28,801 bases of DNA from a virus: IMG/VR virus record IMGVR_UViG_3300025120_000375, positions 1 through 28,801 of that record; one strand, written 5' to 3'. The notes under the pieces were generated by a model, which was given only the letters and a program-made list of their open reading frames with translations, did no database searches and was not told the origin of the DNA. Of the stretch, positions 5,908 through 27,420 are shown in pieces (position 1 is the first letter of the stretch; every line of letters starts with the position of its first letter). The translations under genes were made by a program, and so were the position numbers.

Positions 5908-6303
5908 ATGTTAGACCACAAACACCTCATATCTAAGGGAACGCTTAACGAAAAACTCACAACAGATCAAGTAAAGGATTTGATTGATAAACTAGTAATA
6001 GCTCTTGACATGCGATATGTGGAGGGAATGCCTATGAATCCAGTTGTAGGATACGAACCTAACGAATATCCAGGAGTATCCGGAGTTGGTATTATTACAA
6101 CATCACACATCGCTATACATACATGGGATGACAGTTTGGATTATCAACTAGATATTTATTCATGTAAGGCGTTTGAGAAGGATAGCATAGATTTAGTAAT
6201 CAGTCTGTATGGAATGAAAGAAACATCAGCCAAGTTATTTGATCGAAACTATAAAATAAAACAGTTATGGCCAGAAGAAAAAAATCAAGCAAAAGAGCAA
6301 TAG
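5908..6303 (+). CDS. speD: S-adenosylmethionine decarboxylase-like protein (SpeD family)
   Basis: 131 aa, the size of short prokaryotic AdoMet decarboxylases. Known family members are made as proenzymes that cleave themselves at a Ser, which becomes the pyruvoyl cofactor; they make decarboxylated AdoMet for spermidine synthesis. Here TTSHIAIHTW supplies Ser66 and His71, and DIYSC supplies Cys86. The Ser-to-His (5) and Ser-to-Cys (20) spacings equal those of the Thermotoga maritima enzyme (Ser63, His68, Cys83). Deviations: the usual HTxPE continues here as HTWDD, and the usual CG after the catalytic Cys is CK. speD is a known auxiliary metabolic gene in marine T4-like phages. The substrate might differ from AdoMet, since SpeD paralogues with amino-acid decarboxylase activity are known. 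Confidence 0.8.
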   Translation: MLDHKHLISKGTLNEKLTTDQVKDLIDKLVIALDMRYVEGMPMNPVVGYEPNEYPGVSGVGIITTSHIAIHTWDDSLDYQLDIYSCKAFEKDSIDLVISLYGMKETSAKLFDRNYKIKQLWPEEKNQAKEQ

Positions 6304-6693: not shown

Positions 6694-7617
6694 ATGAATG
6701 TATCACAAACTGAGCTTGTGATGAAGGTACTACATGGACATTTAGGAAGATCTACGCCACATAAAAATGGAGAAAAGAGCTTTCATTGTCCATTCTGTAA
6801 TCATCACAAAAAGAAAATGCAAGTCAATATCTTGACGCAAAAATGGCATTGTTGGGTGTGCAATGCGCGTGGTCAAACTGTGAACTCACTTCTAAAGAAA
6901 AGCAAAGCTCCTGAGTATGTTTTCCCTAAAATACGAGAAGTCTATGGTGATGTAAGGGTCTCAACACAAAAGAAGAAATCCAACAAATTATATTCTCTGC
7001 CAGAGCAATATAAACCACTACACAACCAAAGGAACACTCCTCATTACAGAAACGCATTACACTACGCAATACATAAGAGAGGGCTTTCTCCTATTGATAT
7101 AGTAAAGTATGAAATAGGTTATTGTGAAGATGGACCTTATGGAGGCATGTTAGTGGTACCGAGTTTTGATGAGGATGGATTCTTAAACTACTATGCTGGT
7201 AGAAGTTTCTATGATACAGACCACAAACACAAGAATCCACCAGTATCGAAGGATGTCATTGGGTTTGGTAGTCACATAAACTGGAAAGAGCCTATTGTGA
7301 TAGTAGAGGGTGCATTCGATGCAATATCAACAAGACGCAACGCGATTCCATTGTTTGGTAAAAAGATACTTCCAACACTAAGATCACGTATTTTAAGTGA
7401 GCGACCTCCTAAGCTTTACCTAGCTTTAGATCCAGACGCATATAAGGATAGTCTTGAGGAGATAGAGTACTTTATCAATAATGGTATAGAGGTGTACTAC
7501 ACAGACTTAAAAGATAAAGATCCAAACGAAACTGGACACAAAGGCATGTTAGACATGTTAGAGCTAGCTCAACAGCTTAGCTTTTTTGATTTGATAAAAT
7601 ATAAAATGAACATATGA
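6694..7617 (+). CDS. DNA primase (T4 gp61-like; zinc-binding and TOPRIM domains)
   Basis: 307 aa; T4 gp61 is a little longer (342 aa). It makes RNA primers for lagging-strand synthesis with a hexameric helicase, which is not in this window. The N-terminal CHC2-type zinc domain has C32-P-F-C35 and C53-W-V-C56. The TOPRIM domain shows IVIVEGAFDA with catalytic Glu205 and LALDPDA with the acidic pair Asp246/Asp248. Between them, GYCEDGPYGGMLVVPSF is typical of bacterial/phage primase cores. The protein starts only 30 residues before the zinc domain, so the start is firm. The stop overlaps the ATG of the next gene as ATGA, implying translational coupling with the SbcDC fusion. Confidence 0.9.
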   Translation: MNVSQTELVMKVLHGHLGRSTPHKNGEKSFHCPFCNHHKKKMQVNILTQKWHCWVCNARGQTVNSLLKKSKAPEYVFPKIREVYGDVRVSTQKKKSNKLYSLPEQYKPLHNQRNTPHYRNALHYAIHKRGLSPIDIVKYEIGYCEDGPYGGMLVVPSFDEDGFLNYYAGRSFYDTDHKHKNPPVSKDVIGFGSHINWKEPIVIVEGAFDAISTRRNAIPLFGKKILPTLRSRILSERPPKLYLALDPDAYKDSLEEIEYFINNGIEVYYTDLKDKDPNETGHKGMLDMLELAQQLSFFDLIKYKMNI

Positions 7618-10600: not shown

Positions 10601-10805
10601 ACCAAAGCCTGATTTTATTGCAATTGATGAAGGATTGGGTGTTTTAGATAGCACTAATCTCAACTCAATGCACACACTATTCACTAATATGAAAGACACT
10701 TTCAGGTTTAGTTTAGTTATTTCACACATTGATGTGGTGAGAGATATGGTTGACAACATTATAACAATAGACAGAAAAAACGAATTGTCGTACATAAACT
10801 GTTAA
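7614..10805 (+). CDS. Fused SbcD-SbcC recombination nuclease (T4 gp47 + gp46)
   Basis: 1063 aa. The N-terminal metallophosphoesterase (Mre11/SbcD/gp47) has D19-V-H21, GGD56, G90-N-H-D93, H169 and G201-D-I-H204. From about residue 383 a Rad50/SbcC/gp46 ATPase begins: P-loop APNHAGKS (416-423, Ala in place of the usual first Gly), a long coiled coil from ~570 to ~900 interrupted by a zinc hook C739-E-H-C742, ABC signature LSSG (973-976), Walker B FIAIDE (Asp1005, Glu1006) and the terminal switch His in VISHID. In T4 these are two proteins that resect DNA ends for recombination-dependent replication and host DNA degradation. One continuous frame holds both, with no internal stop. The start is fixed by the ATGA overlap with primase. 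Confidence 0.93.
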   Translation: MSQGITLPNNVDYIFHIADVHIRNWKRHKEFRQVFDKMFKELDKCSDNTIVTVGGDIVHAKTEMSPELISMVSYLFKGLADRRPTFVITGNHDANLNNPHRLDALTPIVQGLKHQNLWYLRDTGLYDIHTPDQKIGVSVFSLLGETDKYITYDKIDNPDQYDLLMALYHGTVANSKVDSGMNIEHGLSWDTFAGFDVAPLGDIHKRQVLSKKHPYMFYPGSTVQQNFGEAYEGHGYGVIDVRDRQDIKCEFQDLPNEYGYYTLEITDGVLPDNLPITKHTRLRIKTIKTDAAQMKRVLATIRKKYKNRDAIVIKLDKGGMNGDEHLGTQLDQGDVRNIQYQNQLLTEYLTDEGVDEDSISKVLEINKKLNGELQQPEVARSIIWKPKKFEFSNMFSYGEDNCIDFSTKMGTCGIFAPNHAGKSAILDALCFCLFDHSFRASKADQVLNRKKESFECTFNFELEGLDYFIHKKAFKYRSGALKGRLRVEIDFWYINEDGNKVSLNGEMRRDTGKIIQSYVGTFDDFILTALSLQQNNSNFIDKTQSERKDLLANFLDVTIFDQLHDLANRSNRKAAIVLEEYQKQDFETKLGDAEKSLDEYTIKHDDAVAVHKKEKAILDDQINKMLMLSEQLEPCEEDGIDISDASESLERYEQELVSLQEDKKVSTKKWEESKKRLTGLEYDKERALNSFDQDLYTNHKAKVLEKIALDTELGELKITIKNKLSKLEKLNKHEYDPNCEHCVSNVFVQDAMKTKLELEEDKTTVADFLQKRMRIVDFIENNKEIQAQADYIRDIATDYNSARADKGDAESEYERLNKDIAACEVNIAETKSQIKQYNKAVKVVERNNKTNAKLSKLNIEKNKQAVAVQKTNKSVRDFYGKKCVAEETIEESTKTIQHMTQLVEDQAIYDIYCKAMYKDGIPFQLISKAVPFIEQHANTILNQIIDFEIALETDGKNINGFICYEDEKWPLELSSGMEKFLSSIALRIALIKITNLPKPDFIAIDEGLGVLDSTNLNSMHTLFTNMKDTFRFSLVISHIDVVRDMVDNIITIDRKNELSYINC

Positions 10806-14942: not shown

Positions 14943-17204
14943 ATGAATGATTTATCAAAATTTCTAGTTGAAAGTATTCTAAACGAAGTTGAAGAGGGAA
15001 TTACTGTAATGTTGCCTGGTGGATTTAAACCACCACATGAAGGACACTTAATGCTTGCAAAAGGCTATGAAGATATGCCACAAGTAAAAGAGGTTGTTAT
15101 TCTTATAGGACCAAAAGAGCGTGATGGTATTACTCTTGAAGATAGCGAAAAAATATGGGAAAAATTACTAGCCGGAACAAAAAAGATTAGAGTAGAAAGA
15201 TCTAAATATCCAAGTCCCCTACTTACAGCATACAAATATATTGAAGAGAAAGGACAACCTGGAGAATCGTATGCATTAGGATCCAGCAGTAAGGGTAGCG
15301 ATTATGATCGAATTCGAGGGTTTGTAGATCAACACCAAGACGATGGGAAATATCACAAAGACGGTGTTAGTGTGGTTGAATTGCCACTAGACAAATCGAA
15401 ACCATTATTCTATAAAAATAGAACGGACGATCAAAACGGTAAACCCACATCAGCATCTCAACTAAGATCAGATTTAGCTGCTCAAGATTATGAGAACTTT
15501 AAAACAAATTATCCGAGCATTACGTCTGACCAACAACTTAGAACTATATTTGACATACTATCAAAAAAAAAGATCCAGGAAGACCACTCCCAGTCTACTT
15601 TGGATGAAGTAGCTTTACGTAAACATTTTGAAGCACTTAAAGGTAAATTCAAAACTTTTATAGAAAAACTTAAACAAGAAGGTCAAGAGACTAAAGCTGC
15701 GTTTATCAAAATTGTTGATGCAGTAAAGAATAAAGAAAAGCTGTCAAAAGCAGAGAGAGTTGCAATAGGCGATCAACTAAAAGATGTACTAAAACTAGCT
15801 GGATTTACAGCAGCATCTGTGTTGCCTGGAGGAGTAATATACCTACTTCTAGCTCGCATGCCAATATTGCAAAGAACTTTAACACCTTCAGCTTTTAGAG
15901 ATGTTGACACTCCTGCAGAATTTTTGGCTGTTAGTGAAGGTCGCAAACTTTTAAGTGAAGGAGGAGCAGCTGGTCATATGGCACATCCGTACGAAGATAT
16001 GGATATGACTTTTGAAGATATTGAAGATATGATTGAAGCAGCTCTAACTGGAAAGGTGGAGTATGCTCAAGAAAAATTAGATGGACAAAACCTTATGGTA
16101 ACTTATAAGGACGGCAAAGTACTTTCCGCAAGAAATAAAGGGCAATTGAAAAATGCAGCAGAAAACGCAATGACTAAAAATGACATGGAAAAGTCAATGC
16201 AACATCTTCCTGACAATGTCCGTAATGCTTTTCTTGATGCAATGCAAGATATCACAGATGCAATTTCAAAACTCACTCCAACTGAAAAAGAGGAGTTTTT
16301 TGGAAACGGTACTAAGTTTATAAACATGGAACTTCTACACCCTTCCAGTGAAAATGTAGCTGCTTACGGAGTAACTCAGTTAAGAATGCACAATGTGCAG
16401 GAGTATGATGAAAACGGAAATGTTGTAGGAAGCGACAGTGAAGCGCCCACTAAAATACAACAAGCTTTAGATCGAGTAGAAGCTTCTAAGCAAGACACAT
16501 ACGAAATAAGAGCTACAGACTTGGTAAATCTTAAACAAACTAAAGATTACAAAAACCAAAAAGAAGAGCTAATCAAAGAGCTTGGCAATCTCAGAAGTAA
16601 ATATCAGTTAACCAAGAGTGATAAACTAGGATTATATTTTCAGAACTTTTGGTCCGACTTTATAAAAAACAATGCCAAAACATACAAATACGATCTGCCT
16701 GACGATGTATTACAGAACATTATTAACAGATGGGCTTTTGGTCAAAAACAACCTAACCTACGAGAATTAAAAAAGTCAATAGACAGTCCAGAATTTTTAG
16801 AATGGTTTAATAACATGGATAAAGGAAGAGGTGTTAGAGAGCAAAAAAAGATAGCAGTTGAACCGGTAGAAGATATATTTTTAAAGCTAGGAGTTTTTGT
16901 ATTGAAAAGCTTAGAGGGATTGGTAGCAATTAATCCTAACGATTCGATTGCAAAAATGAAAAGAGAGTTAGCTAGCTCTATCGAACAGTTGAAGGTAAAA
17001 GCAAACAACGATAAACTTCAAGACGATGATGCACCTTTGAGATTTCTCAAAGCACAACTCAAACGCTTAGATAAGATTGGAGGATTCGACGCAATAGTAC
17101 CATCAGAAGGTATAGTGTTTAAACACAAAGGAAAATTATACAAATTGACTGGAGCCTTTGCACCAGTGAATCAAATTATAGGATACATAAAATTCGGAAG
17201 ATAA
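14943..17204 (+). CDS. Bifunctional HIGH-type nucleotidyltransferase and ligase-like covalent nucleotidyltransferase
   Basis: 753 aa with two catalytic modules. Residues ~20-210: a HIGH-superfamily nucleotidyltransferase (NMN adenylyltransferase/cytidylyltransferase type) with PGGFKPPHEGHL (HxGH at 32-35), YALGSSSKGSDY and the closing TSASQLR motif (~169-175). Residues ~340-753: a nucleotidyltransferase of the RNA/DNA ligase superfamily, with motif I K378-L-D-G in YAQEKLDGQNL, then SARNKG, FINMELLHP, motif IV S-E722-G-I-V-F and motif V-like K734-L-T-G. Cytidylyltransferase-like and ARNKG-type ligase-like proteins are known in cyanophages and pelagiphages, but the substrate is not. Between the modules (~215-330) is a Lys/Glu-rich helical linker. 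The 3' end overlaps the next ATG as TAATG. Possible jobs are NAD-related salvage coupled to RNA repair, or end-capping of nucleic acid; both are inference. Confidence 0.75.
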   Translation: MNDLSKFLVESILNEVEEGITVMLPGGFKPPHEGHLMLAKGYEDMPQVKEVVILIGPKERDGITLEDSEKIWEKLLAGTKKIRVERSKYPSPLLTAYKYIEEKGQPGESYALGSSSKGSDYDRIRGFVDQHQDDGKYHKDGVSVVELPLDKSKPLFYKNRTDDQNGKPTSASQLRSDLAAQDYENFKTNYPSITSDQQLRTIFDILSKKKIQEDHSQSTLDEVALRKHFEALKGKFKTFIEKLKQEGQETKAAFIKIVDAVKNKEKLSKAERVAIGDQLKDVLKLAGFTAASVLPGGVIYLLLARMPILQRTLTPSAFRDVDTPAEFLAVSEGRKLLSEGGAAGHMAHPYEDMDMTFEDIEDMIEAALTGKVEYAQEKLDGQNLMVTYKDGKVLSARNKGQLKNAAENAMTKNDMEKSMQHLPDNVRNAFLDAMQDITDAISKLTPTEKEEFFGNGTKFINMELLHPSSENVAAYGVTQLRMHNVQEYDENGNVVGSDSEAPTKIQQALDRVEASKQDTYEIRATDLVNLKQTKDYKNQKEELIKELGNLRSKYQLTKSDKLGLYFQNFWSDFIKNNAKTYKYDLPDDVLQNIINRWAFGQKQPNLRELKKSIDSPEFLEWFNNMDKGRGVREQKKIAVEPVEDIFLKLGVFVLKSLEGLVAINPNDSIAKMKRELASSIEQLKVKANNDKLQDDDAPLRFLKAQLKRLDKIGGFDAIVPSEGIVFKHKGKLYKLTGAFAPVNQIIGYIKFGR

Positions 17205-17503
17205 TGGAATTAAAAAAACTTTTAAGCGAAAAGAAAGAAGCAATCGCAACGTCACCAAACACAAATATGACGTTACACTATGACCCTCAATTTGCTGAGG
17301 TAGGAGAGGATGGAAAACCAGAGTTTTCTTTTAGTATAACAATGTCGTCAGTAGGTGGTAAGGATTTTTACCGAACAGTAGCTGACAAAGATGAAGAAAA
17401 GAAACTTGCAGAAGCTATGAAGCTTGAGTTGCGAAGAGCTTTAAGAAAGTTTGATAAGAATGTATCAGCAGTATTAGAAAAATATAACGCACAAGCACGA
17501 TAA
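17204..17503 (+). CDS. Small unknown protein
   Basis: 99 aa, unrecognised. The N-terminal half has beta segments (MTLHYDPQFAEV, PEFSFSITMSS) and the C-terminal half is a charged helix (EEKKLAEAMKLELRRALRKF). There is no Cys, no membrane segment and no signal peptide. It overlaps the stop of the ligase-like gene by 1 nt and is followed 1 nt later by the zinc-ribbon gene, so it belongs to the same operon; a head- or tail-assembly role or an accessory role to the ligase are both open. Confidence 0.6.
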   Translation: MELKKLLSEKKEAIATSPNTNMTLHYDPQFAEVGEDGKPEFSFSITMSSVGGKDFYRTVADKDEEKKLAEAMKLELRRALRKFDKNVSAVLEKYNAQAR

Positions 17504-17504
17504 T

Positions 17505-18017
17505 ATGAAAAAAATTAAAGTTACAAGAAACAAGTATGTCGAGCGTCACGAAGGTGATGTATGGGAAGAAAACAATAAAACGTGGACAATTAAAAATGGC
17601 ATAAAAAGAACGGTTACAAAAATGGATAAGGCTAGAAAGGACTTTCTTGTTCCATTAGCTTGCCCGTGTTGTGGTAAAAAGATGAACAATAGATTAGATG
17701 CCAAATTTTGGAAAACTGATCGAAAGTGTTTTAATTGTGTTGTTGATGAACATCATGAGTTAAGAGCAAAAGGATTAAAAAAAGAATTTAATGCGAAGAA
17801 AAAGTATGAAAATGCTAAATCGTATTTGAAAGAGGTTCAAGCTGGATTAGAAGAATATAAAGAATCTTCAGCCAGGAACACACATGTTACTGAGAAAGGA
17901 AAAATTGAAAAATGGGCTAACCCTGATAATAAGATCATACACGAAATGATTGATAAAGAGCTAGAAAAGCTTGAAGAAGTGGTTAGTGGATTAAAGGATA
18001 AGCTAGATGAAAAATGA
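17505..18017 (+). CDS. Small zinc-ribbon protein with coiled coil
   Basis: 170 aa. Residues 53-56 (CPCC) and 75-78 (CFNC) can form a four-Cys zinc site. The N-terminus (MKKIKVTRNKYVERHEGDVW) is basic. From about residue 85 a long charged helix or coiled coil runs through KKYENAKSYLKEVQAGLEEYK and ends in KELEKLEEVVSGLKDKLDEK. I recall homologues in T4-like marine phages but no assigned function; nucleic-acid binding or a structural zinc site are the likely options. It overlaps the next gene by 11 nt in another frame. Confidence 0.65.
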   Translation: MKKIKVTRNKYVERHEGDVWEENNKTWTIKNGIKRTVTKMDKARKDFLVPLACPCCGKKMNNRLDAKFWKTDRKCFNCVVDEHHELRAKGLKKEFNAKKKYENAKSYLKEVQAGLEEYKESSARNTHVTEKGKIEKWANPDNKIIHEMIDKELEKLEEVVSGLKDKLDEK

Positions 18018-18468
18018 AGAGTCTAAGGGTTTATGGGCTAACATAAGAGCCAAAAAAGCTAGAGGAGAAAAATCATCTCCTAAAGGCTCTAAAGCATACA
18101 AAGCTGCAGTCAAAGCTGGCAAGAAGATTAATGCCAAAGAATCCGTTGTTTACCGAAATGAAGGTTTGAGACTTGAAATAATAGAACACTCAGAACCAGT
18201 ATTATATCAAGAGGCTAAGTATAATGGACGTACTGTTAAGCTTAACAAAATAATGCGTGGTGATGTTAAGAAATTTAAAGTACATGTAAATTCTGGAAAA
18301 AAGAATGCAGACGGTACTATAAAAGCAAAAAAAGTAAATTTTGGTCAAAAAGGAATGAAAATCAAAAAGAGTAATCCTGCAAGACGTAAGTCTTTTAGAG
18401 CAAGACACAATTGCGATAACCCAGGACCAAAAACTAAAGCAAGATACTGGTCTTGCAGAAAATGGTAA
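18007..18468 (+). CDS. Basic protein with conserved phage motif ending YWSCRKW
   Basis: 153 aa, very Lys/Arg-rich. Two segments look strongly conserved in aquatic phages from memory: the N-terminal GLWANIRAKKARGE and the C-terminal RRKSFRARHNCDNPG followed by KARYWSCRKW, which includes Cys136 and Cys150. The middle holds a small beta segment (RLEIIEHSEPVLYQEAKYNG and following). No enzymatic motif is evident. The strong positive charge suggests binding to DNA or to an acidic partner, perhaps inside the capsid; that is inference. The start overlaps the zinc-ribbon gene by 11 nt, and the last base precedes a TATTTATA motif. Confidence 0.65.
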   Translation: MKNEESKGLWANIRAKKARGEKSSPKGSKAYKAAVKAGKKINAKESVVYRNEGLRLEIIEHSEPVLYQEAKYNGRTVKLNKIMRGDVKKFKVHVNSGKKNADGTIKAKKVNFGQKGMKIKKSNPARRKSFRARHNCDNPGPKTKARYWSCRKW

Positions 18469-18476
18469 TATTTATA
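18469..18476 (+). promoter_or_regulatory. TATTTATA motif, candidate phage promoter
   Basis: Begins directly after the stop of the basic protein (18468) and ends 3 nt before the ATG at 18480. Its place argues that the ParB-like gene starts at 18480 rather than at the in-frame TTG (18453) or ATG (18462) upstream. Confidence 0.5.
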
Positions 18477-18479
18477 AGT

Positions 18480-19370
18480 ATGAACAAATCACTTTTTAAT
18501 CAAATAAACGATATGCGGAAAGATATTTTATCTGAGTCCGATGTATTTGATAACCCTAAAGCTGTTGGATTAAGTCAGCTAGATAAAAGTCTAGCAGGTA
18601 GTGCCGCCGGTGGAGGATATGATGATGACAATAAAGAGGATGATATCATAAACGGAGGACCTGATGCTGTACCAGTGAATCAATTGAAGCCTGCGCAGAA
18701 AGAGGTGATTGTATCTAAAGCTGTTGCATTTGCTCTTGGATATGCTTTCAACGATTTTAAAGAGGTTAAAGCTAAGAATGGAGCTCCAGACTTAGCAAAC
18801 ATGGAAGCTATCGTATCCAATGACGATTTCATTATGGATGGACATCATAGATGGGCAGCTGCCACTCTCCTATATCCAGGCGCTAAAGTAGCTGTAACAA
18901 AGCTAGACTTACCAGGCCAACAACTCATAACTGTACTTAACACTATGACTAAAGGCAAATTAGGTATTGATGCTGGAAACAAAGGGAAGGGTGATATAGC
19001 TAACTTCACAGGAGACAAGGTCCAAAATGCAATTAAGTATGCTTTGAAAGATGGTACAGAGGAAGGGTTAAAACAATGGCCACATCTATCCGCTGAAGAA
19101 GTTAGAACGGCATTAGGAAAAGTTCCAGGAGCACAAGGTGACTCAGAAAAGGGAATGGCCATTATGGCTGACAATGCTGGAAAGTTGGTTAAACAAAAAA
19201 TGCAAGGAGCTCCCGAAAGAAAGGACATGCCAGTTATTGATGCAGAAAAAGTAAAGTCAATTGTAAAGTACTTAGAAAAAGGAACAGCAGATGTTCTTCC
19301 GCCATACAGTAGCGATGTACAAAAACACTTAAAAGAAACATATCAGTGGAGAGCTGGAATTAAAAAATAA
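18480..19370 (+). CDS. ParB/sulfiredoxin-domain protein
   Basis: 296 aa from the ATG at 18480, chosen because upstream in-frame starts overlap the preceding gene and the TATTTATA motif. A ParB/sulfiredoxin-like (ParB-N) fold is indicated by VPVNQLKPAQKEV near residue 65 and by FIMDGHHRWAAA with D120-G-H-H-R-W125, followed by AKVAVTKLDLPG. In ParB this loop binds CTP; in sulfiredoxins ATP. Phages carry many stand-alone versions with unknown roles (nuclease, regulator or head-linked). No ParA, no helix-turn-helix typical of full ParB and no parS-like repeat were seen, so plasmid-style partition is unlikely. The C-terminal ~100 residues are helical (ISTMTK-type linker, then AEKVKSIVKYLEKG). The N-terminal ~45 residues are helical and then acidic. 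Confidence 0.75.
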   Translation: MNKSLFNQINDMRKDILSESDVFDNPKAVGLSQLDKSLAGSAAGGGYDDDNKEDDIINGGPDAVPVNQLKPAQKEVIVSKAVAFALGYAFNDFKEVKAKNGAPDLANMEAIVSNDDFIMDGHHRWAAATLLYPGAKVAVTKLDLPGQQLITVLNTMTKGKLGIDAGNKGKGDIANFTGDKVQNAIKYALKDGTEEGLKQWPHLSAEEVRTALGKVPGAQGDSEKGMAIMADNAGKLVKQKMQGAPERKDMPVIDAEKVKSIVKYLEKGTADVLPPYSSDVQKHLKETYQWRAGIKK

Positions 19371-19373
19371 AAC

Positions 19374-19781
19374 ATGAAATTAAAAGATTTATTACCAATA
19401 TCAAGTCTACAAGAAGTACAAGGTGATGCGTTGTCAATAGAGTATTTTCGCAAGTTTAGCGAGTGTTGTGATTACAATGTGCTATTTGATTATGTAGGCG
19501 TAAAAGATGATATAGAAATATACACTGCAGATCTTACAAATTTTGGCGATATGAGTGTCGTAGTATCAAAAGCTTATATAGTAGCTAAGATTACTAAAAA
19601 ACATGCAATGTTTGGTTTGGTATATGTGTTGAATGGATTAGAGAAACTAGACGCTACCATTTGTAAGGTTACTCGAAAAGAAAAAGATGGTCATGTCAAC
19701 TTAGAATGTATTAAGTTTGATGCAGAGGACAAGAAAAACTTTTCTGGCGACGATGTGAAATTTAAAAATGTAATCAAATGA
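19374..19781 (+). CDS. Unknown small protein
   Basis: 135 aa, unrecognised. Mixed alpha/beta: SIEYFRKFSECCDYNVLFDY, then strands DIEIYTADLTN, MSVVVSKAYIVAKI, FGLVYVLNGLEKLDATICKV and VNLECIKFDAEDK. It has four Cys but no paired CxxC site. The start lies 3 nt after the ParB-like stop in A-rich sequence without Shine-Dalgarno, and the stop overlaps the next ATG as ATGA, so it is made from the same message. Confidence 0.6.
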   Translation: MKLKDLLPISSLQEVQGDALSIEYFRKFSECCDYNVLFDYVGVKDDIEIYTADLTNFGDMSVVVSKAYIVAKITKKHAMFGLVYVLNGLEKLDATICKVTRKEKDGHVNLECIKFDAEDKKNFSGDDVKFKNVIK

Positions 19782-20185
19782 AAAAGAAGTACACAAAAAA
19801 ACAACTAAACAGAGCTTTGATCCGAGAGCTTGTTAAGCGTGAACTTTACAAGACTTTGAAAGAAGGTGGCGGTGGTGCTCCTTCCGAAGAAGAAGAAGAG
19901 AATGCAGCAGCCAACGCTTCCATAGAGCCAGATGCAAAGCCTGAAGAACCTACAGAAGAGCCTACAGAAGAGCCTACAGAAGAGCCTACGGAAGATGAAC
20001 CAGGTCTTGAAGAAGATCTAGCAGAACTTACTGATCTTTACGTCAAAAAACTTCAAGATGCTAAATCTGATGTTGATTCTAGTGACGTAGTCGAAATCCT
20101 AACTACAATACTCGATAGCTTTGGAGGTGGTAATCAAGATAAATTAACAATTTTGCAAGGAGTAAAAGAAGAGAGCTTACGATGA
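19778..20185 (+). CDS. Acidic low-complexity protein with EEPT repeats
   Basis: 135 aa. Basic helical N-terminus (MKKKYTKKQLNRALIRELVK), then a Gly- and Glu-rich stretch, four EEPT-type repeats around residues 56-71 and an acidic helical C-terminus (LAELTDLYVKKLQDAKSD, VVEILTTILDSFGGG). Such a basic helix / acidic linker layout is seen in phage scaffold, core or internal head proteins, but homology is not visible. ATGA overlaps join it to both neighbours. Confidence 0.6.
   Translation: MKKKYTKKQLNRALIRELVKRELYKTLKEGGGGAPSEEEEENAAANASIEPDAKPEEPTEEPTEEPTEEPTEDEPGLEEDLAELTDLYVKKLQDAKSDVDSSDVVEILTTILDSFGGGNQDKLTILQGVKEESLR
19943..19990 (+). repeat. Four tandem 12-bp repeats encoding EEPT
   Basis: GAAGARCCTACR occurs four times head to tail (19943, 19955, 19967, 19979); the two middle units are identical. 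The repeat lies in frame within the acidic linker, so copy number can change by slippage without frameshift. Confidence 0.85.
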
Positions 20186-21024
20186 AAAAACTAGAAAAAT
20201 TAATAGAGAGTGCAGTCAAAGCAATGACTCCTCTGAAGGAGTACACAGATAAGAATTTCTCAGGAGCAAAGGTCATATCAGATGCTATGCAGAACAAACC
20301 TGATAGCGAGGACATGGAATTTATTACAAAGTATTTTCCAAACGCAGTTAAAAGTATGTCGACAGCGCAAGCAAACTTGAAAGCTAGTGATGCGAGTCCT
20401 ATCAAAAAGAGAATGGGACAATACGCTCCAATGTTTGTACATGTTCAATATCATACATTTACAGAAACTTCTGGACAAACATTCGCAGTACATCAAACAC
20501 AATATTACAACTCTAACTTCAAAGATCAAGATCCAAAATTCAATCCAAGGGTGACTGAGCTTAACTTTTATAGTGGCGAAGATCAAAACGATAAGATGGG
20601 AATGATTCTTGCAACAACAGATGAGTATATAAAAGATTTGAGAGATTTAGAAAGACTAGGAATGTTGGGAAAAAGAGTGAGCGAATCAGTTAATAGTAAT
20701 TTGAATGAAAACAAAGGACAGGATGCAGCTACAGAATTAATAGCTAAACTCAGAAGAACCTTATATCCTACACTAAGCGATCTTGAGTTAGACGCATTTA
20801 AAAATGAAATGGCTCAACACCTTGACGCCACTATGAATGAAAACAACATGAATACAAAAACAGAATCAATAGTAAAGCGACTTAAAGAAGACTCTGAGTA
20901 CCAGAAGTTTTTCAAATCAGCAATGGATAAGTTTGGCGTAAAATCACCAAAAAGTTTGAGTGATAAAAAGAAGAAAGAGTTCTTTAATTACGTTGACAAA
21001 AACTACAAAGCTAAAGGCGAGTAG
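20182..21024 (+). CDS. Unknown phage protein with conserved FFNYVDKN C-terminus
   Basis: 280 aa. N-terminal helix MKKLEKLIESAVKAM; the middle is alpha/beta (MFVHVQYHTFTETSGQTFAVHQTQYY, RVTELNFYSGEDQNDKMGM). The C-terminal ~45 residues, EYQKFFKSAMDKFGVKSP and KKKEFFNYVDKNYK, form a helical tail that I recall at the C-termini of many aquatic phage proteins, often near head genes; the function is unknown and it could be an interaction tag. A middle segment ELIAKLRRTLYPTLSDLELD is helical. There is no catalytic motif. The start is fixed by an ATGA overlap. Confidence 0.65.
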   Translation: MKKLEKLIESAVKAMTPLKEYTDKNFSGAKVISDAMQNKPDSEDMEFITKYFPNAVKSMSTAQANLKASDASPIKKRMGQYAPMFVHVQYHTFTETSGQTFAVHQTQYYNSNFKDQDPKFNPRVTELNFYSGEDQNDKMGMILATTDEYIKDLRDLERLGMLGKRVSESVNSNLNENKGQDAATELIAKLRRTLYPTLSDLELDAFKNEMAQHLDATMNENNMNTKTESIVKRLKEDSEYQKFFKSAMDKFGVKSPKSLSDKKKKEFFNYVDKNYKAKGE

Positions 21025-21038
21025 AATTAAAGCAAGTT

Positions 21039-21395
21039 ATGACTCTAAATAAATTTCACCTCATATTCCTAGGGATCTACACTGCAGTAGTGGTGTTTGT
21101 CACATGGTATTTTGTTAAGCCGGAAGCTGCAAGCAATACCGGATTGACGGTAAAAGATCAACAACTAGTTGACAGCTTATCGAGTGTTATTTCTGTACTA
21201 GAGTATCAGCAGTTTGAAAAGGACAGCCTAATAATAGGCTTCCAGCGAGACATATCTTTACTAGACGTTCAGATAGATGGCACCAAAACTAAAATTACAC
21301 AAATACAAAAACAACATGAAGAAGAGCTTAATGATATTGAGCGTTTTACTGTCACTGACCTTGACAAGTTTTTCGCAGACCGATACAAAAAATAA
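21039..21395 (+). CDS. Membrane-anchored coiled-coil protein, i-spanin-like
   Basis: 118 aa with one N-terminal transmembrane helix (residues ~6-25, HLIFLGIYTAVVVFVTWYFV), then a periplasm-type soluble domain dominated by a coiled coil (VISVLEYQQFEKDSLI, DGTKTKITQIQKQHEEELNDI). The size and topology match inner-membrane spanins (Rz type), which fuse inner and outer membranes at the end of lysis. The following gene starts inside this one in another frame and encodes an exported coiled-coil protein, as in overlapping Rz/Rz1 pairs. Position just ahead of terminase is compatible with a late lysis role. No endolysin or holin is recognised nearby, so an alternative is a generic membrane protein. 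Confidence 0.55.
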   Translation: MTLNKFHLIFLGIYTAVVVFVTWYFVKPEAASNTGLTVKDQQLVDSLSSVISVLEYQQFEKDSLIIGFQRDISLLDVQIDGTKTKITQIQKQHEEELNDIERFTVTDLDKFFADRYKK

Positions 21396-21738
21396 CGAAG
21401 ATTCCGTCGTAGTTTTACCATACAGTATAGCACAACAGATAGCATCAGATTTAGTCAAGTACGATCAGTGTGTTGAGATGTTCGATTATACTAATGTACT
21501 ACTAGACTTAGCTAATCAAAAAATAGCAAAGCAAGACAGCTTAATACAACAAAGCACTCAAAAGTCTTTACTGTGTAGAAAGCAAGTCGACGCACAAACC
21601 CAGCAGATCACAATATATGTGACTGGATTAGAAAACCTACAGAAAGAAAACGAAAAATTAAAAAGGAACCAACGTTGGTTAGGGGCTGGCTTAGGCGCAA
21701 CAGTCTTAACAACAATCCTTGTACTATTTATAAAGTAG
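21316..21738 (+). CDS. Exported coiled-coil protein with C-terminal membrane anchor
   Basis: 140 aa from the ATG at 21316; a longer in-frame start at 21277 adds 13 basic residues in front of a perfect signal peptide and is rejected. MKKSLMILSVLLSLTLTSFS looks like a cleavable signal with a Bacteroidota-style SFSQ junction; there is no lipobox Cys. The middle is a coiled coil (LLDLANQKIAKQDSLIQ, GLENLQKENEKLKRNQ) with two Cys, and residues ~121-140 (WLGAGLGATVLTTILVLFIK) form a C-terminal transmembrane helix. It overlaps the i-spanin-like gene by 80 nt in a different frame. The lack of a lipoprotein signal argues against a classical Rz1; a pair of interacting envelope proteins remains plausible. 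Its last codons carry the TATTTATA motif. Confidence 0.6.
   Translation: MKKSLMILSVLLSLTLTSFSQTDTKNNEDSVVVLPYSIAQQIASDLVKYDQCVEMFDYTNVLLDLANQKIAKQDSLIQQSTQKSLLCRKQVDAQTQQITIYVTGLENLQKENEKLKRNQRWLGAGLGATVLTTILVLFIK
21725..21732 (+). promoter_or_regulatory. TATTTATA motif, candidate phage promoter
   Basis: Lies in the last codons of the exported coiled-coil gene and ends 7 nt before the terminase ATG. TACT/AGTA (21722-21725/21733-21736) flank it as a short inverted repeat. Confidence 0.5.
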
Positions 21739-21739
21739 A

Positions 21740-23305
21740 ATGAGTGGAGTAGATTTAAAGCAGCTAATAAGGACTGAGTACGTAAAGTGTGCCAAAGATC
21801 CGGTGTACTTTATGAAAAAGTATTGCCTAATCCAACACCCTGAGAGAGGCAAAATACCTTTTAAGTTATTTCCGTATCAAGAGGAGTTGACTAGAGACAT
21901 GGAAGAGAATGACCGTGTTGTCATACTCAAGTCTCGCCAATTAGGAATATCAACCCTTTCAGCTGGATACTCTTTATGGACAATGCTGTTTAAGAGTGAC
22001 AAAAATATCCTTGTTGTTGCAATTGATCAAAACACATCTAAAAACCTTGTAACAAAGGTTAGTGTGATGTTTGAGAATTTGCCAAGCTGGCTACGGCTAA
22101 AGACAACTGAAAAGAATAAACTGTCTTTGAGACTTTCTAACGGATCACAAATTAAAGCAGTAGCAAGCTCAGGAACATCAGGTCGTTCAGAAGCACTATC
22201 TTTGGTGATTATTGATGAGGCAGCTTTCGTTGACAATGCGGAAGAGTTGTGGGCATCACTGCAACAAACACTAGCAACTGGAGGTAGAGGTGTCATACTA
22301 AGCACACCAAATGGAACTGGTAATTTCTTTCATAAGATATGGATGAAATCAGAAGAGGGAGAGAATCAATTCTTTACTAAAAGGTTACCATGGCAGGTGC
22401 ATCCCGAAAGAGATCAACAGTGGAGAGATAGGCAGGATGAGGAGTTAGGACTTAGATTAGCAGCGCAGGAGTGTGATTGCGATTTCAGTACATCAGGTAA
22501 TACTGTTGTGCATCCAGACATGCTAAACTTCTATCGACAAACCTACATGCAGGATCCAATTGAAAAACGAGGATTTGACAGCAATTTGCATGTGTGGGAG
22601 ATTCCAAATTATACAAAAGACTATGTAGTTGTAGCCGATGTTGCTCGTGGAGATGGAACAGATTATTCAGCATTCCATGTGTTTGATTTAGAAGAGGCAA
22701 CACAAGTAGCTGAATACAAAGGTCAGCTGAACACTAAGGATTATGGTAACATGCTTGTGTCTATTGCTACAGAGTACAATGATGCATTGCTGGTTATTGA
22801 AAATGCAAACATAGGATGGGCAACTATACAACAAGTAATTGATCGTTCATACAAAAACCTCTACTATACACCAAAAGATATTGGATTAGATTCAGAAAGA
22901 TATCTAGCACGAGCTACAGATGTTCAACGTACCAAAGATCAGGTAGCTGGCTTTACAATGTCTTCAAAAGTACGACCTTTAATTATTTCCAAGATGGAGT
23001 TGTATATGAGGGAAAAAAGCTGTATAATAAGGAGTAGAAGACTCTTAGATGAGCTCGGAGTTTTCATATGGCGAAACGCCAGACCAGAAGCTCAACAAGG
23101 ATACAATGATGATTTAGTAATGAGTTGGTGTATGGCATTATGGGTAAGAGACACAGCTTTAAAGTTGCGTCAAGCAGGAATTGAGCTTACAAAAAGAGCT
23201 TTAGATCATGCTAAATCTACAGCCGTATATAAAACATCCCACGAAACTAAAACATGGAAAATGGATGTAAAAGGTAAAGACGAAGACTTAAATTGGTTAT
23301 TGTAG
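21740..23305 (+). CDS. Terminase large subunit (T4 gp17-like)
   Basis: 521 aa; T4 gp17 has 610. It is the packaging motor ATPase and headful nuclease that docks on the portal. The ATPase domain (residues ~1-260) has P-loop K64-S-R-Q-L-G-I-S71 of the gp17 type, Walker B LVIIDEAAF (D159, E160) and coupling motif STPNGTGN. The RNase H-like nuclease (~290-480) has VVVADVARGDGTDYSAF (D300), VIENANIGWATIQ and YNDDLVMSW (D457/D458), which give the metal-binding acids. It starts 1 nt after the preceding stop. No small terminase subunit was recognised in the window. Confidence 0.96.
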   Translation: MSGVDLKQLIRTEYVKCAKDPVYFMKKYCLIQHPERGKIPFKLFPYQEELTRDMEENDRVVILKSRQLGISTLSAGYSLWTMLFKSDKNILVVAIDQNTSKNLVTKVSVMFENLPSWLRLKTTEKNKLSLRLSNGSQIKAVASSGTSGRSEALSLVIIDEAAFVDNAEELWASLQQTLATGGRGVILSTPNGTGNFFHKIWMKSEEGENQFFTKRLPWQVHPERDQQWRDRQDEELGLRLAAQECDCDFSTSGNTVVHPDMLNFYRQTYMQDPIEKRGFDSNLHVWEIPNYTKDYVVVADVARGDGTDYSAFHVFDLEEATQVAEYKGQLNTKDYGNMLVSIATEYNDALLVIENANIGWATIQQVIDRSYKNLYYTPKDIGLDSERYLARATDVQRTKDQVAGFTMSSKVRPLIISKMELYMREKSCIIRSRRLLDELGVFIWRNARPEAQQGYNDDLVMSWCMALWVRDTALKLRQAGIELTKRALDHAKSTAVYKTSHETKTWKMDVKGKDEDLNWLL

Positions 23306-23329: not shown

Positions 23330-25177
23330 ATGGCAGAAGAAAACAAATCTAATTTATTTAGCAGACTACGAAAGTTGTTTAGCACAGACGTTATCATTCG
23401 TAATGTAGGTGGAAAGCAATTGAAGGTGGTTGACACGGACAATATACAGTCAGTAGGTAACCTAGACAATAATAGTCGTATCGATCGATACAATAGAATG
23501 TATGGAGCTGGTGTAACTACCGCTTACAATCAGGGTGAAATACTACAAGCTACTAGGATTGAATTATTCAAAGATTATGAAGCAATGGATTCAGATAGCA
23601 TCATATCATCAGCTCTTGACATATATGCTGATGAATGTACAGCTAAGGACGAGTTTGATGACACACTCACAATCACCACAAACAACGATAAAATACACAA
23701 AGTACTTCACAACTTGTTTTACGATATACTTAATGTTGAGTTTAACTTATGGCCTTGGACCCGTAGTGTTTTAAAGTATGGTGACTTCTATCTCCATCTC
23801 AACATTACTGAGAAGTTTGGAATAACAAACGTGGAACCGATCTCAGCTTACGAGATGGTACGAGAAGAGGGTCAGGATCTAGCCAATCCAAACAAAGTAA
23901 CTTTTAAGAGAGATATGATGGGAGGGATTGCATCTAGCACAATGATCCATCGTAATGAAACAGAAGAATATGATAACTTTGAAATAGCACACTTTCGATT
24001 GCTAAATGACACCAACTTCTTACCATACGGTAGATCGTTATTGGAGCCAGCAAGAAAGGTATGGAAACAGCTTACTTTAATGGAGGATGCGATGTTGATT
24101 CATCGAATTATGAGAGCTCCAGACAAGCGTATTTTCAAAATTGATATTGGTAATATACCACCAAACGAGGTTGATGCATTTATGGAAGGAATGATCAATA
24201 AGATGAAAAAAGTACCGTTTATGGATGAAACCACTGGAGAGTACAATCTCAAGTACAACATGCAAAACATACTAGAAGATTTCTACCTACCAGTCCGTGG
24301 TGCAGAAAGTGGAACACAAATAGAAACAACTCCTGGATTACAAATGGACTCCATTCCAGATATTGAATATCTACAAAACAGAATGTTAGGTGCTTTAAAG
24401 ATTCCAAAAGCTTATTTAGGATACTTAGAAGACACTACCGGAAAAGCATCTTTAGCTTCACAAGATTTTAGATTTGCAAGAACAATAGAACGAGTACAGA
24501 AGATCATAGTTAGCGAGCTTACAAAAGTTGCTATTGTACACTTATATTCACAAGGATTTACTGATGAAGAGATTGTCGACTTCTCTCTGAAACTTACACC
24601 TCCTTCTACATACTACGAAAGAGAAAAATTAGAATTGTGGACTAGTAAAGCTACCTTAGCAGGCGACTTAGTTGAGAAAAAGCTATTCAGTAGATTCTGG
24701 GCTTACGAACATATATTCAATATGCAACCAGAACAGTGGATGGAGGAACAAGAACGAATTGCAGCTGACTCTCAAGAATTCTTCCGCTTAGAACAAATCA
24801 AAACTGAAGGAAATGATCCAAAGAAAACTGGACAATCATTCGGAACAGCTCACGATATAGCTAGTCTATATAAAGGCGATCAAGGAGTACCAAAAGGGTA
24901 TGATGAAAAAGAAATGCCTGAGGGTGGATGGCCTGGTGCTGGAAGACCTAAAGAACCTGGTACATATGGCAAGCATTCACATCCATTAGGATGGGATCCT
25001 GCAGGCCACAAACAAAACAAAGCGGCTGGACGTGTAGTCTATGAGTCTCAGAAATTAGACAATTACAAGGGATTAAAGGATAACCTTAAGACAAAATCCG
25101 AAGCACTACGCAGTACATACAGTAAAGATGAGAAGAAATCTGGCCTTCTTAACGAAGAAAACTTGCTAGATGAGTAA
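23330..25177 (+). CDS. Portal (head-to-tail connector) protein, T4 gp20-like
   Basis: 615 aa, somewhat longer than T4 gp20 (524). Twelve copies form the ring through which DNA is packaged and to which neck and tail attach. Family features include RIDRYNRMYGAGVTTAYNQ near residue 50, DSIISSALDIYADECT, NFLPYGRSLLEPARKVWKQL, EDAMLIHRIMRAPDKRIFK, the long stem helices and LPVRGAESGTQIETTPG, followed by LQNRMLGALKIPKAYLGYL. The last ~100 residues (from about 510) are Gly/Lys/Pro-rich with GKHSHPLGWDP, an extension beyond the core that is probably internal to the head or disordered. Only A/T-rich sequence precedes the ATG. Confidence 0.95.
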   Translation: MAEENKSNLFSRLRKLFSTDVIIRNVGGKQLKVVDTDNIQSVGNLDNNSRIDRYNRMYGAGVTTAYNQGEILQATRIELFKDYEAMDSDSIISSALDIYADECTAKDEFDDTLTITTNNDKIHKVLHNLFYDILNVEFNLWPWTRSVLKYGDFYLHLNITEKFGITNVEPISAYEMVREEGQDLANPNKVTFKRDMMGGIASSTMIHRNETEEYDNFEIAHFRLLNDTNFLPYGRSLLEPARKVWKQLTLMEDAMLIHRIMRAPDKRIFKIDIGNIPPNEVDAFMEGMINKMKKVPFMDETTGEYNLKYNMQNILEDFYLPVRGAESGTQIETTPGLQMDSIPDIEYLQNRMLGALKIPKAYLGYLEDTTGKASLASQDFRFARTIERVQKIIVSELTKVAIVHLYSQGFTDEEIVDFSLKLTPPSTYYEREKLELWTSKATLAGDLVEKKLFSRFWAYEHIFNMQPEQWMEEQERIAADSQEFFRLEQIKTEGNDPKKTGQSFGTAHDIASLYKGDQGVPKGYDEKEMPEGGWPGAGRPKEPGTYGKHSHPLGWDPAGHKQNKAAGRVVYESQKLDNYKGLKDNLKTKSEALRSTYSKDEKKSGLLNEENLLDE

Positions 25178-26053: not shown

Positions 26054-26809
26054 ATGGGACTAAGCTTAGAAGAAAAGAAAGACTTAAAAAAATACATCAA
26101 AGAGCAGGCAGCTAAGATGAAAGAAAACACTACTGGTGCCATTGCTACTTATGATACTCCAAACGCATTCACCGGAGATTCAGACGATGATGGTACACAA
26201 GCTGTTGATCTTACGGATCCAGAATACGCTTACTCTATCGAAGGTCCTAAAAAGAGAAATCCTAAATATTCTGTAAAACTAAACGAAGTATCTTATCAAG
26301 CTTTTAAAAAAGACGAATCGAGATCTACTGTACAGAAGGTTAATGCAAACATATTAGAAGTAAACAAAAATATTAGAGAGTTGGCAAGAATGCTACAACA
26401 TAGCATAAAGCTAAAAACTGAACAGAAAATGGACAACAATATCCATTGGAAAAAAACTAACGAAGCATTAAAAAAGATGCACCATCGTATATCAGTATTG
26501 TCAGAAAAAGCTAATCAACTCTACGATCTAACAGAAGCGACAGCCCAACAAGCTCAAGGAGACTTGCTATCACTACTAAACAGTGTTGGCGATCCACAGT
26601 TTGATGCAATACGACCTAACGATATTGATCACAATCCAATAGGACCTGATCATTTTGAGTTTGATGTATTGTTAAATGGCGAACCAATTGCAATTGATTG
26701 GGACAAAGGAAACTTAACATATCAAGACTATAGCGAAGAGATACCGTTAGGAAACATTGATAATCCAGAGGAAGTTATCGCTAATATTAAAAAACACTTA
26801 ATATCATGA
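26054..26809 (+). CDS. Unknown head-cluster protein with central coiled coil
   Basis: 252 aa from the ATG at 26054; a longer in-frame start at 26006 would overlap the previous gene by 47 nt and add an implausible hydrophobic leader. N-terminus is MGLSLEEKKDLKKYIKEQ, then an acidic linker (~30-75), a coiled coil (~95-150, NILEVNKNIRELARMLQHSI and following) and a C-terminal beta-like domain (DHFEFDVLLNGEPIAIDWDKG, ~200-250). It is unlike T4 gp22 in sequence, but the helical/acidic make-up and the place directly before the prohead protease suit a core or chaperone component. The stop overlaps the protease ATG as ATGA. Confidence 0.65.
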   Translation: MGLSLEEKKDLKKYIKEQAAKMKENTTGAIATYDTPNAFTGDSDDDGTQAVDLTDPEYAYSIEGPKKRNPKYSVKLNEVSYQAFKKDESRSTVQKVNANILEVNKNIRELARMLQHSIKLKTEQKMDNNIHWKKTNEALKKMHHRISVLSEKANQLYDLTEATAQQAQGDLLSLLNSVGDPQFDAIRPNDIDHNPIGPDHFEFDVLLNGEPIAIDWDKGNLTYQDYSEEIPLGNIDNPEEVIANIKKHLIS

Positions 26810-27420
26810 AAAGAGTCTTAATAGATTATATTGGATCAATTCAAGTATCGCCTTCACAGATCAACGAATCCATGAATAAAAATAATGGAAAGTTAATCGT
26901 GTCAGGAATAATGCAAAGAGCAAGCACTGGCGGTGATGAAAACTTTAATCAAAATGGAAGAAGCTATCCTTTACCTATTTTGAAAAAAGAATGCGAAGCT
27001 TACAAAAACACTTTTGTAAAAGAGCGTAGAGCATTAGGTGAACTAGATCATCCAGATTCCCAAGTAGTAAACTTATCGAACGTGTCTCACAATGTGCTTG
27101 ATTTGTGGTGGCAAGGAAACGATCTGATGGGCAAGATAGAAATACTATCTACACCATCAGGAAACATTGCAAAGGAGTTAATGAAATCTGGGATCAGATT
27201 GGGTATTAGCTCAAGAGGAATGGGATCTGTTAAAGAGTTAGGAGAAGGAAAGGTAGAAGTACAAGACGACTTTGAAATCGTATGTTGGGATTTGGTTAGC
27301 AATCCATCTACACAAGGTGCATTTATGAACTCATCTTTAAACGAAAATACCAACTCAAACAAAAGCAATAAGAATACAAGAATTCACTCACTTATTAGTG
27401 AGATAATATCAGTAATGTAA
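26806..27420 (+). CDS. Prohead maturation protease (T4 gp21-like)
   Basis: 204 aa; T4 gp21 has 212. This herpesvirus-fold serine protease sits in the prohead core and trims core and shell proteins before packaging. LDHP (His82) and GISSRGMGSV (Ser135/Ser136) are the family's catalytic His and Ser regions; NQNGRSYP near residue 48 and VSNPSTQGAFM near residue 168 also fit. It is joined to its neighbours by ATGA and TAATG overlaps. The major capsid protein, its main substrate, should lie downstream of the window. Confidence 0.92.
   Translation: MKRVLIDYIGSIQVSPSQINESMNKNNGKLIVSGIMQRASTGGDENFNQNGRSYPLPILKKECEAYKNTFVKERRALGELDHPDSQVVNLSNVSHNVLDLWWQGNDLMGKIEILSTPSGNIAKELMKSGIRLGISSRGMGSVKELGEGKVEVQDDFEIVCWDLVSNPSTQGAFMNSSLNENTNSNKSNKNTRIHSLISEIISVM

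What the first reader, a model, noticed from the sequence alone, without database searches (positions are those of the whole stretch)
14943..17204. Fusion of a HIGH nucleotidyltransferase to a ligase-type covalent nucleotidyltransferase
One protein holds an HxGH/TSASQLR nucleotidyltransferase and a KLDG...EGIVF...KLTG ligase-family domain. Separately, phages use NMN adenylyltransferases for NAD salvage and RNA ligases for tRNA repair. Joined, they could make and use a nucleotide-linked intermediate, for example attaching a NAD-like or CDP-linked group to RNA, or repairing RNA under host attack. Its position in a late/virion region, not beside other RNA-repair genes, is odd.
Basis: partly seen in the sequence, partly recalled or inferred. 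Interest (0 to 1): 0.7.

Follow-up and report, generated by a model that had tools for sequence, protein, structure and literature searches.

The report
Capsid-targeted nucleotidyltransferase–RNA-ligase phage protein
This phage gene joins two enzymes, one like those that make NAD and one like RNA ligases, behind a short tag that looks like the 'pack me into the virus head' signals of phage T4, so the enzymes are probably carried in the particle, cut apart there, and delivered into the host at the start of infection.

Summary
In detail: one 753-aa ORF (14943-17204, +) holds an N-terminal HIGH nucleotidyltransferase (H32xxH35, SASQLR) and a C-terminal covalent nucleotidyltransferase of the RNA/DNA-ligase fold (K378). 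The ligase model is confident (pLDDT 89, pTM 0.86), and all 50 listed PDB matches are RNA or DNA ligases. Its motifs are invariant in 56 relatives. HIGH and ligase share an ORF in 44 of 48 complete proteins. The late-region position now has an explanation. The protein starts with a leader ending in L-x-E, as do 5 of the 7 gene families between it and the pre-terminase genes, the capsid protein of a relative, and a cyanophage HIGH-domain protein found in virions by mass spectrometry. All five [LI]xE+small-residue sites of the protein fall in its three disordered linkers, and most module joints of longer relatives carry the same site. Best reading: a capsid-targeted polyprotein, trimmed by the gp21-like protease into separate enzymes that enter the host with the DNA, probably for RNA repair and NAD/nucleotide defence. 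Packaging, cleavage and both activities are inferred, not measured.

The parts
14943..17204 (+). whole gene, 753 aa, HIGH nucleotidyltransferase + helical segment + ligase-type covalent nucleotidyltransferase
   Evidence: relatives with the same order
14943..14987 (+). N-terminal leader MNDLSKFLVESILNE, ending L-N-E15; capsid-targeting-sequence-like
   Evidence: leader with [LIVF]xE in 42 of 48 complete family members, before different second modules; enriched over shuffles and over matched motifs
15000..15560 (+). HIGH-superfamily nucleotidyltransferase domain (residues 20-206): H32xxH35, SASQLR R175
   Evidence: Foldseek top hits NMN, nicotinate-nucleotide and phosphopantetheine adenylyltransferases, prob 1.00
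15561..15608 (+). disordered linker with putative protease sites I-Q-E213|D and L-D-E222|V
   Evidence: pLDDT < 50 at 210-222; [LIVM]xE at this joint in all 13 relatives examined
15609..15902 (+). helical LETM1-like segment with a hydrophobic stretch (LPGGVIYLLLARM)
   Evidence: helices in model; resemblance to LETM1-like domains is recalled, not confirmed by Pfam
15951..15962 (+). putative protease site L337-S-E339|G340 directly before the ligase module
   Evidence: [LIVMF]xE|GG[AGS]xGH in 49 of 67 distinct sequences; stand-alone ligases L003 and L064 have their leader end at this point
15960..17201 (+). ligase-type covalent nucleotidyltransferase module (residues 340-753)
   Evidence: AF2 pLDDT 89.2, pTM 0.86; all 50 listed Foldseek PDB hits are RNA or DNA ligases
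16071..16085 (+). ligase motif I, E377-K378-L-D380-G381
   Evidence: invariant E, K, D, G
16131..16139 (+). motif Ia-like R397-N-K399
   Evidence: R and K invariant
16329..16331 (+). motif III glutamate E463
   Evidence: invariant; aligned with motif III of T4-type Rnl1 by hhalign
16548..17093 (+). helical insertion between motifs IIIa and IV (residues about 536-717)
   Evidence: DSSP of model
17106..17120 (+). motif IV E722-G-I-V-F726
   Evidence: E, G, V, F invariant
17142..17150 (+). motif V K734-L-T736 (second lysine of canonical KxK replaced by Thr)
   Evidence: K and T invariant in 56 sequences; the Rnl1 of carrier phage Mel-JY01 reads KYK
17204..17503 (+). small protein, leader MELKKLLSE| before conserved KKEAIATSP
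   Evidence: leaders differ in relatives but always end xxE immediately before KKEAIAT
18480..19370 (+). ParB-like protein with leader ...RKDILSE|
   Evidence: 6 of 7 relatives carry [LI]xE; DGHHRW motif seen in translation
19374..19781 (+). small protein with leader MKLKDLLPISSLQE|
   Evidence: 12 of 12 relatives carry [LI]xE
19778..20185 (+). small protein with leader ...LYKTLKE|GGGG
   Evidence: 12 of 12 relatives
20182..21024 (+). protein with leader ...AMTPLKE|Y
   Evidence: all members of its family carry [LI]xE
21740..23305 (+). terminase large subunit
   Evidence: phrog_2 5.9e-48
23330..25177 (+). portal protein
   Evidence: phrog_213 2.1e-64
26806..27420 (+). head maturation (prohead) protease, the proposed processing enzyme
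   Evidence: phrog_207 4.4e-52

Best explanation
The gene encodes a capsid-targeted polyprotein. (1) A 15-residue leader directs it into the prohead [inferred]. (2) The phage's gp21-like prohead protease cuts after L-x-E at residue 15, in the linker near 213-222, and at 339 [inferred], giving a HIGH adenylyl/cytidylyltransferase of about 22 kDa, a LETM1-like helical piece and a ligase of about 47 kDa. (3) These are ejected with the DNA, like T4 Alt [inferred]. (4) The ligase forms a K378-nucleotidyl adduct and acts on nucleic acid ends, most likely sealing RNA cut by host defences. The HIGH enzyme most likely makes NAD+ from NMN or a related dinucleotide to offset NAD-depleting defence [folds shown, reactions inferred]. 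In longer relatives the same chassis also carries a PNK/Zeta-like kinase, and in single cases a HAD-type or NUDIX module, which fits an RNA end-healing and nucleotide-salvage kit.
For: Fold: C-domain model hits only ligases, archaeal RNA ligase 2vug 5.8e-4 and T4 Rnl1 9do4 1e-3; N-domain hits NMNAT/PPAT. Catalytic motifs invariant. Leader: [LI]xE in the first 32 residues in 0.88 of the ligase family vs 0.37 in shuffles, and about 0.8-1.0 vs 0.15-0.5 in the LxE-bearing neighbour families; family mean 0.92 vs 0.25 for other genes, while [LI]xD gives 0.14 vs 0.40. The KKEAIATSP neighbour has leaders of 8-19 residues of different sequence, all ending xxE before the same mature start. The capsid protein of a relative has a T4-like propeptide ending LLKE|G, the same residues as before the ligase module in several members. 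A prohead protease is encoded. All five [LI]xE+small sites of the window protein lie in its three disordered linkers. Module joints in polyproteins carry [LIVMF]xE with unrelated upstream sequence. T4 Alt is cut at ITE-6 and LTE-619 (PMC5694885). HIGH-domain proteins of cyanophages are found in virions by mass spectrometry (PMC10665884, PMC9602691), and the one of S-CREM2 begins MKNFSSFLTE|A. Extra modules: Zeta_toxin 3.7e-11, CTP_transf_like 2.6e-9, NUDIX 7.9e-12.
Against: No virion proteome was found for any phage with this ligase family. A clade (L037, L042, L044, L051) lacks the leader and starts directly at the HIGH domain. 18 of 67 ligase joints lack LxE, the ones seen reading LLLM|GG. 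Two families between the gene and terminase (17505-18017, 18007-18468) lack LxE and were counted as controls. The module-joint anchors were chosen after seeing examples. Ligase motif V lacks the second lysine, so the chemistry may differ from known ligases. NadV, the usual partner of phage NMNAT, is absent from the complete Mel-JY01 genome and from LR756508, which weakens the NAD-salvage part. Mel-JY01 already has a conventional Rnl1 elsewhere. The cyanophage authors note that their NMNAT could be a contaminant of the virion preparation.
Confidence: 0.6

Rival explanations
1. A true bifunctional enzyme: the two domains stay joined and work in sequence, the HIGH domain making a dinucleotide or regenerating NAD+ and the ligase domain using it (for example NAD+ as adenylate donor with NMN recycled by the HIGH domain, or NAD/CDP-type groups attached to RNA).
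For: Pairing in one ORF in 44 of 48 complete members and on nearby genes in the two stand-alone cases; two distinct HIGH subtypes occupy the same slot; motif V is KxT rather than KxK.
Against: LxE sites in disordered linkers between the domains in nearly all relatives, and ligase modules that exist alone starting at the same residue. Upstream neighbours of the ligase vary (LETM1-like, HAD-type, membrane-like, other), so there is no fixed HIGH-ligase interface.
Confidence: 0.15
2. An intracellular late or early enzyme, not packaged: an RNA-repair ligase plus NMN adenylyltransferase that simply sits in the late operon.
For: Phages are known to encode NadM-type and RNA ligase enzymes as soluble proteins (PMC7824862, PMC9503650); one clade lacks the leader.
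Against: Leader and LxE pattern shared with adjacent genes and capsid protein; cyanophage HIGH homologues with a similar leader found in virions.
Confidence: 0.17
3. A virion structural or DNA-end-binding protein that reuses the ligase and HIGH folds without catalysis.
For: Late-region position between tail and terminase genes; motif V change; a second ligase-like domain with degenerate motif I (NLDG or KLNG) exists in L003 and L064.
Against: Motif I lysine, Ia, III, IV and the first motif V lysine are invariant over 56 sequences down to about 36-40% identity and in three annotated-record relatives at 31-33%; the HIGH histidine, Ser/Arg motif and Lys117 are kept.
Confidence: 0.08

Closest known systems
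T4 RNA ligase 1 (Rnl1) and archaeal RNA ligase (Rnl3-type, PDB 2vug)
   Same: Covalent nucleotidyltransferase fold with motifs I, Ia, III, IV, V in order; Foldseek top hits; hhalign to phage Rnl1 E 0.0025 with motifs I, Ia and III in register.
   Different: About 180-residue helical insertion between IIIa and IV (known relatives, from memory, carry their helical domain after motif V); protein ends about 17 residues after motif V; KxT not KxK in motif V; conserved GGAxGHMxHPxxD element before motif I; no significant Pfam match.
T4 Alt and internal proteins IPI-IPIII (head-packaged, gp21-processed)
   Same: Short N-terminal leader ending (I/L)xE; late gene; prohead protease in the genome; enzyme cargo.
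   Different: Two or more enzymes on one chain with internal LxE sites; different enzymes; packaging not shown here.
Polyvalent proteins of phages (Iyer et al. 2017, PMC5512222)
   Same: Multi-domain, late-region, disparate enzymatic modules, ParB-like partners, proposed injection.
   Different: Ligase-type nucleotidyltransferase and HIGH modules; in the passages found, that paper mentions RNA ligases only in its section on 2H domains; protease-type sites at joints are not a stated feature there.
Cyanophage virion 'cytidyltransferase/NMNAT' (phrog_395; S-CREM2 gp154, S-SCSM1 ORF91)
   Same: HIGH domain behind a leader; detected in virions; window matches phrog_395 at 5e-5.
   Different: No ligase module seen.
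NadM and NadR bifunctional NMN adenylyltransferases of phages
   Same: HIGH domain fused to another enzyme in phages; NUDIX or P-loop kinase modules also occur here.
   Different: Ligase partner; NadV missing from two large genomes.

Membership tests
Covalent nucleotidyltransferase (RNA/DNA ligase, capping enzyme) superfamily | ligase nucleotidyltransferase fold | tested here: met
   all 50 listed PDB hits are ligases
Covalent nucleotidyltransferase (RNA/DNA ligase, capping enzyme) superfamily | motif I KxDG with invariant lysine, plus motifs III and IV | tested here: met
Covalent nucleotidyltransferase (RNA/DNA ligase, capping enzyme) superfamily | motif V KxK (usual in ATP-dependent members) | tested here: not met
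   KxT invariant; fold and other motifs place it in the superfamily as a divergent branch
T4 RNA ligase 1 (Rnl1) family | match to Pfam RNA_lig_T4_1 over its cut-off | tested here: not met
   no Pfam hit; the true Rnl1 of Mel-JY01 scores 1.7e-16
T4 RNA ligase 1 (Rnl1) family | RNA ligation activity | not testable with these tools
   needs enzyme assay
HIGH-superfamily nucleotidyltransferases | Rossmann-like fold with (H/T)xxH and S/TxxxR motifs | tested here: met
NMN adenylyltransferase (NadM/NadR/NadD) | curated family score above cut-off | tested here: not met
   NCBIfam E 0.0095-0.09 for the window and 4e-6 for L079, all below cut-offs
NMN adenylyltransferase (NadM/NadR/NadD) | NadV in the same phage, as reported for phage NadM (PMC9503650) | tested here: not met
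   absent in complete Mel-JY01 and in LR756508; present in LR756500 only
T4-type head-packaged, protease-processed proteins | 10-20 residue leader ending L/I-x-E | tested here: met
T4-type head-packaged, protease-processed proteins | gp21-like prohead protease in genome | tested here: met
   phrog_207 4.4e-52
T4-type head-packaged, protease-processed proteins | presence in virion and cleavage | not testable with these tools
   needs virion mass spectrometry; precedent in cyanophages
Polyvalent proteins | multiple disparate enzymatic domains in one late-region protein | tested here: met
Polyvalent proteins | injection into the host | not testable with these tools
   inferred from leader only

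The most novel reading that the evidence does not exclude
A widespread class of phages uses one capsid-targeting leader to load a whole enzyme polyprotein (HIGH adenylyltransferase, RNA-ligase-like enzyme and, in some, kinase, HAD-type or NUDIX modules) into the head, and its prohead protease dices it at LxE joints into a ready-made RNA-repair and NAD/nucleotide-rescue kit that is injected before any phage gene is expressed. The ligase is a new family with altered motif V chemistry.
Probability: 0.42. Interest if true: 0.82.

Novelty: new variant of a known kind. Interest (0 to 1): 0.64.

Why it matters
If right, repair of RNA and restoration of NAD would be delivered with the infecting DNA, before phage genes could supply them, by phages common in sea and lake metagenomes but almost uncultured. 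It would give the prohead protease a further use besides trimming capsid and internal proteins: cutting apart a multi-enzyme polyprotein. It gives a function and a direct test for a family that occurs in over 580 viral stretches with almost no annotation, and adds a divergent branch to the RNA-ligase superfamily with an unusual motif V and domain layout. [quoted passage not shown]

Tried and rejected
Pfam, PHROG, NCBIfam and PDB sequence searches with the window protein alone gave no significant ligase hit. PDB profile hits to GTP pyrophosphokinases (E 0.005) fall mostly in the helical insertion and do not agree with the fold; rejected as chance. NAD+-dependent ligase (LigA-like motif V) was considered from memory but not tested, so it is kept only inside a rival. 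NadV co-occurrence was tested as support for NAD salvage and failed in two of three large genomes. The LETM1 resemblance of residues 223-320 could not be confirmed by Pfam. Chromosomal or prophage copies were sought: six hits, all short MAG contigs that are probably phage contigs binned with hosts. No paper describing this ligase family was found; the literature tool does not cover most subscription journals.

Full report
What is there. The window is a 28.8-kb virus record of a tailed phage. The ORF at 14943-17204 is intact, 753 aa. It follows tail-like genes and lies upstream of terminase (21740), portal (23330) and head maturation protease (26806).

Domains. Residues 20-206 form a HIGH-superfamily nucleotidyltransferase: AF2 pLDDT mostly 80-93 over this part, Foldseek prob 1.00 to NMN, nicotinate-nucleotide and phosphopantetheine adenylyltransferases, though E-values are only about 1e-3. 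H35, S170, K117 and R175 are kept across relatives including Prevotella Lak phages, where the domain stands alone; position 32 is H or T, as the superfamily motif allows. Residues 223-320 are helical with a hydrophobic stretch. Residues 340-753 form a covalent nucleotidyltransferase: pLDDT 89.2, pTM 0.86. Every one of the 50 listed PDB matches is an RNA or DNA ligase, best E 5.8e-4. TM-scores are low (about 0.2), probably because about 180 residues of helices (536-717) sit between motifs IIIa and IV, so this is a distant branch. hhalign against a phage Rnl1 alignment gives E 0.0025 for the single comparison, though with only 12% reported probability, with motifs I, Ia and III in register. Motif V is K-x-T in all 56 sequences, against K-x-K in the Rnl1 of a carrier phage.

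Distribution. Annotated phage records hold only three carriers of the ligase module: Microcystis phage Mel-JY01 and two uncultured huge phages. Mel-JY01 keeps the gene at the same place, a few genes before terminase, and has a conventional Rnl1 elsewhere. In 48 relatives with a complete 5' end, 44 carry a HIGH motif in the same ORF. Of the four without, L003 and L064 are stand-alone ligases, each with a separate HIGH gene downstream; L040 has its HIGH motif in a short ORF just upstream; L129 was not followed up. Proteins reach over 1,500 aa and add a Zeta/PNK-like P-loop kinase, and in single or few cases NUDIX, HAD-type and ParB-like modules.

Leader and joints. The N-terminus MNDLSKFLVESILNE resembles leaders of other members that have different second modules, such as MNKLTRWLVETILTE before a KGQHRG module or MSLKKLVEEITKPILQE before the kinase. 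An [LI]xE in residues 4-32 occurs in 0.88 of the family against 0.37 in shuffles. Among eight gene families from 14943 to 21024, six show this; averaged over those plus three head genes the rate is 0.92, against 0.25 in other genes, while [LI]xD is 0.14 against 0.40. The head group was chosen knowing the motif, and 17505 and 18007, inside the cluster, were placed with the controls, so these figures are descriptive. The strongest single case is the gene at 17204: leaders of 8 to 19 residues and different sequence all end xxE directly before KKEAIAT. In the window protein five of nine [LI]xE triplets are followed by a small or acidic residue, and all five lie in the three disordered linkers; the chance that random placement of nine sites puts one in all three is 0.006 (linker limits set by hand from pLDDT). 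In the polyproteins the joints before kinase, KGQHRG, AVxGxK, helical-membrane and ligase modules carry [LIVMF]xE in 4/4, 6/7, 4/4, 4/4 and 49/67 distinct cases, with unrelated sequence upstream; the anchors were picked after seeing examples. Stand-alone ligases L003 and L064 have leaders ending LILE|GG and FLFE|GG, exactly the internal site of the fusions. The putative capsid protein of a relative has a propeptide ending LLKE|G at residue 55 (capsid identity by position, size and neighbours, not by profile).

Link to known biology. T4 Alt is cut by gp21 at ITE-6 and LTE-619, and T4 internal proteins bear 10-20 residue leaders (PMC5694885, PMC9958956). HIGH-domain proteins were found by mass spectrometry in virions of several cyanophages (PMC10665884, PMC9602691); the S-CREM2 one begins MKNFSSFLTE|A and that of S-SM2 MKSFFQFLSE|A. 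Virion-packaged NAD/ADPr enzymes and polyvalent proteins are an established idea (PMC9503650, PMC5512222).

Interpretation. Shown: both folds (by prediction), conserved catalytic motifs, recurrent pairing, leader and joint pattern, protease gene. Inferred: packaging, cleavage, injection, RNA ligation, NAD-type synthesis. The most likely role is a defence-countering kit delivered with the DNA. The NAD part is the weakest: curated NMNAT models do not reach their cut-offs, and NadV is missing from two large carrier genomes.

Verdict. A real, conserved and largely undescribed phage enzyme family of a known general kind (head-packaged effectors), with a new ligase branch and a plausible new packaging and processing arrangement.

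Noticed in passing
window 7614-10805: SbcD-like nuclease and SbcC-like ATPase appear fused in one 1063-aa ORF (phrog_7339 at 34-131, phrog_77 at 299-1061); a similar-length AAA gene lies in Mel-JY01 at 183173-186373.
   Followed up: no
L003:7256-9217 and L064:5594-7333: Another HIGH-domain protein near the stand-alone ligases has an N-terminal ligase-like region with degenerate motif I (NLDG, KLNG); in the L003 protein that region matches stretches of other huge phages (LR756501-504) without the HIGH part.
   Followed up: partly
L023:8819-11242; L078:2-2266: Polyprotein variants with a HAD-type DFDDT module and with a NUDIX domain (7.9e-12) upstream of the ligase module.
   Followed up: partly
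L002:4483-7230: Huge-phage member with a ParB-like domain in front of HIGH and ligase modules in one 915-aa ORF.
   Followed up: no
window 18480-19370: ParB-like protein with its own LxE leader next to the target gene; ParB-like domains are also common in polyvalent proteins.
   Followed up: partly
window 5908-6303: S-adenosylmethionine decarboxylase-like gene (phrog_3125, 2.2e-12) between tail-like and replication genes.
   Followed up: no
window 21277-21738: Small protein with a signal-peptide-like or membrane N-terminus just before terminase, conserved in relatives; function not examined.
   Followed up: no
L037, L042, L044, L051: Clade whose proteins start directly at the HIGH domain (T instead of H at the first HIGH position) without a leader but keep LTE or LSE before the ligase module.
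   Followed up: partly
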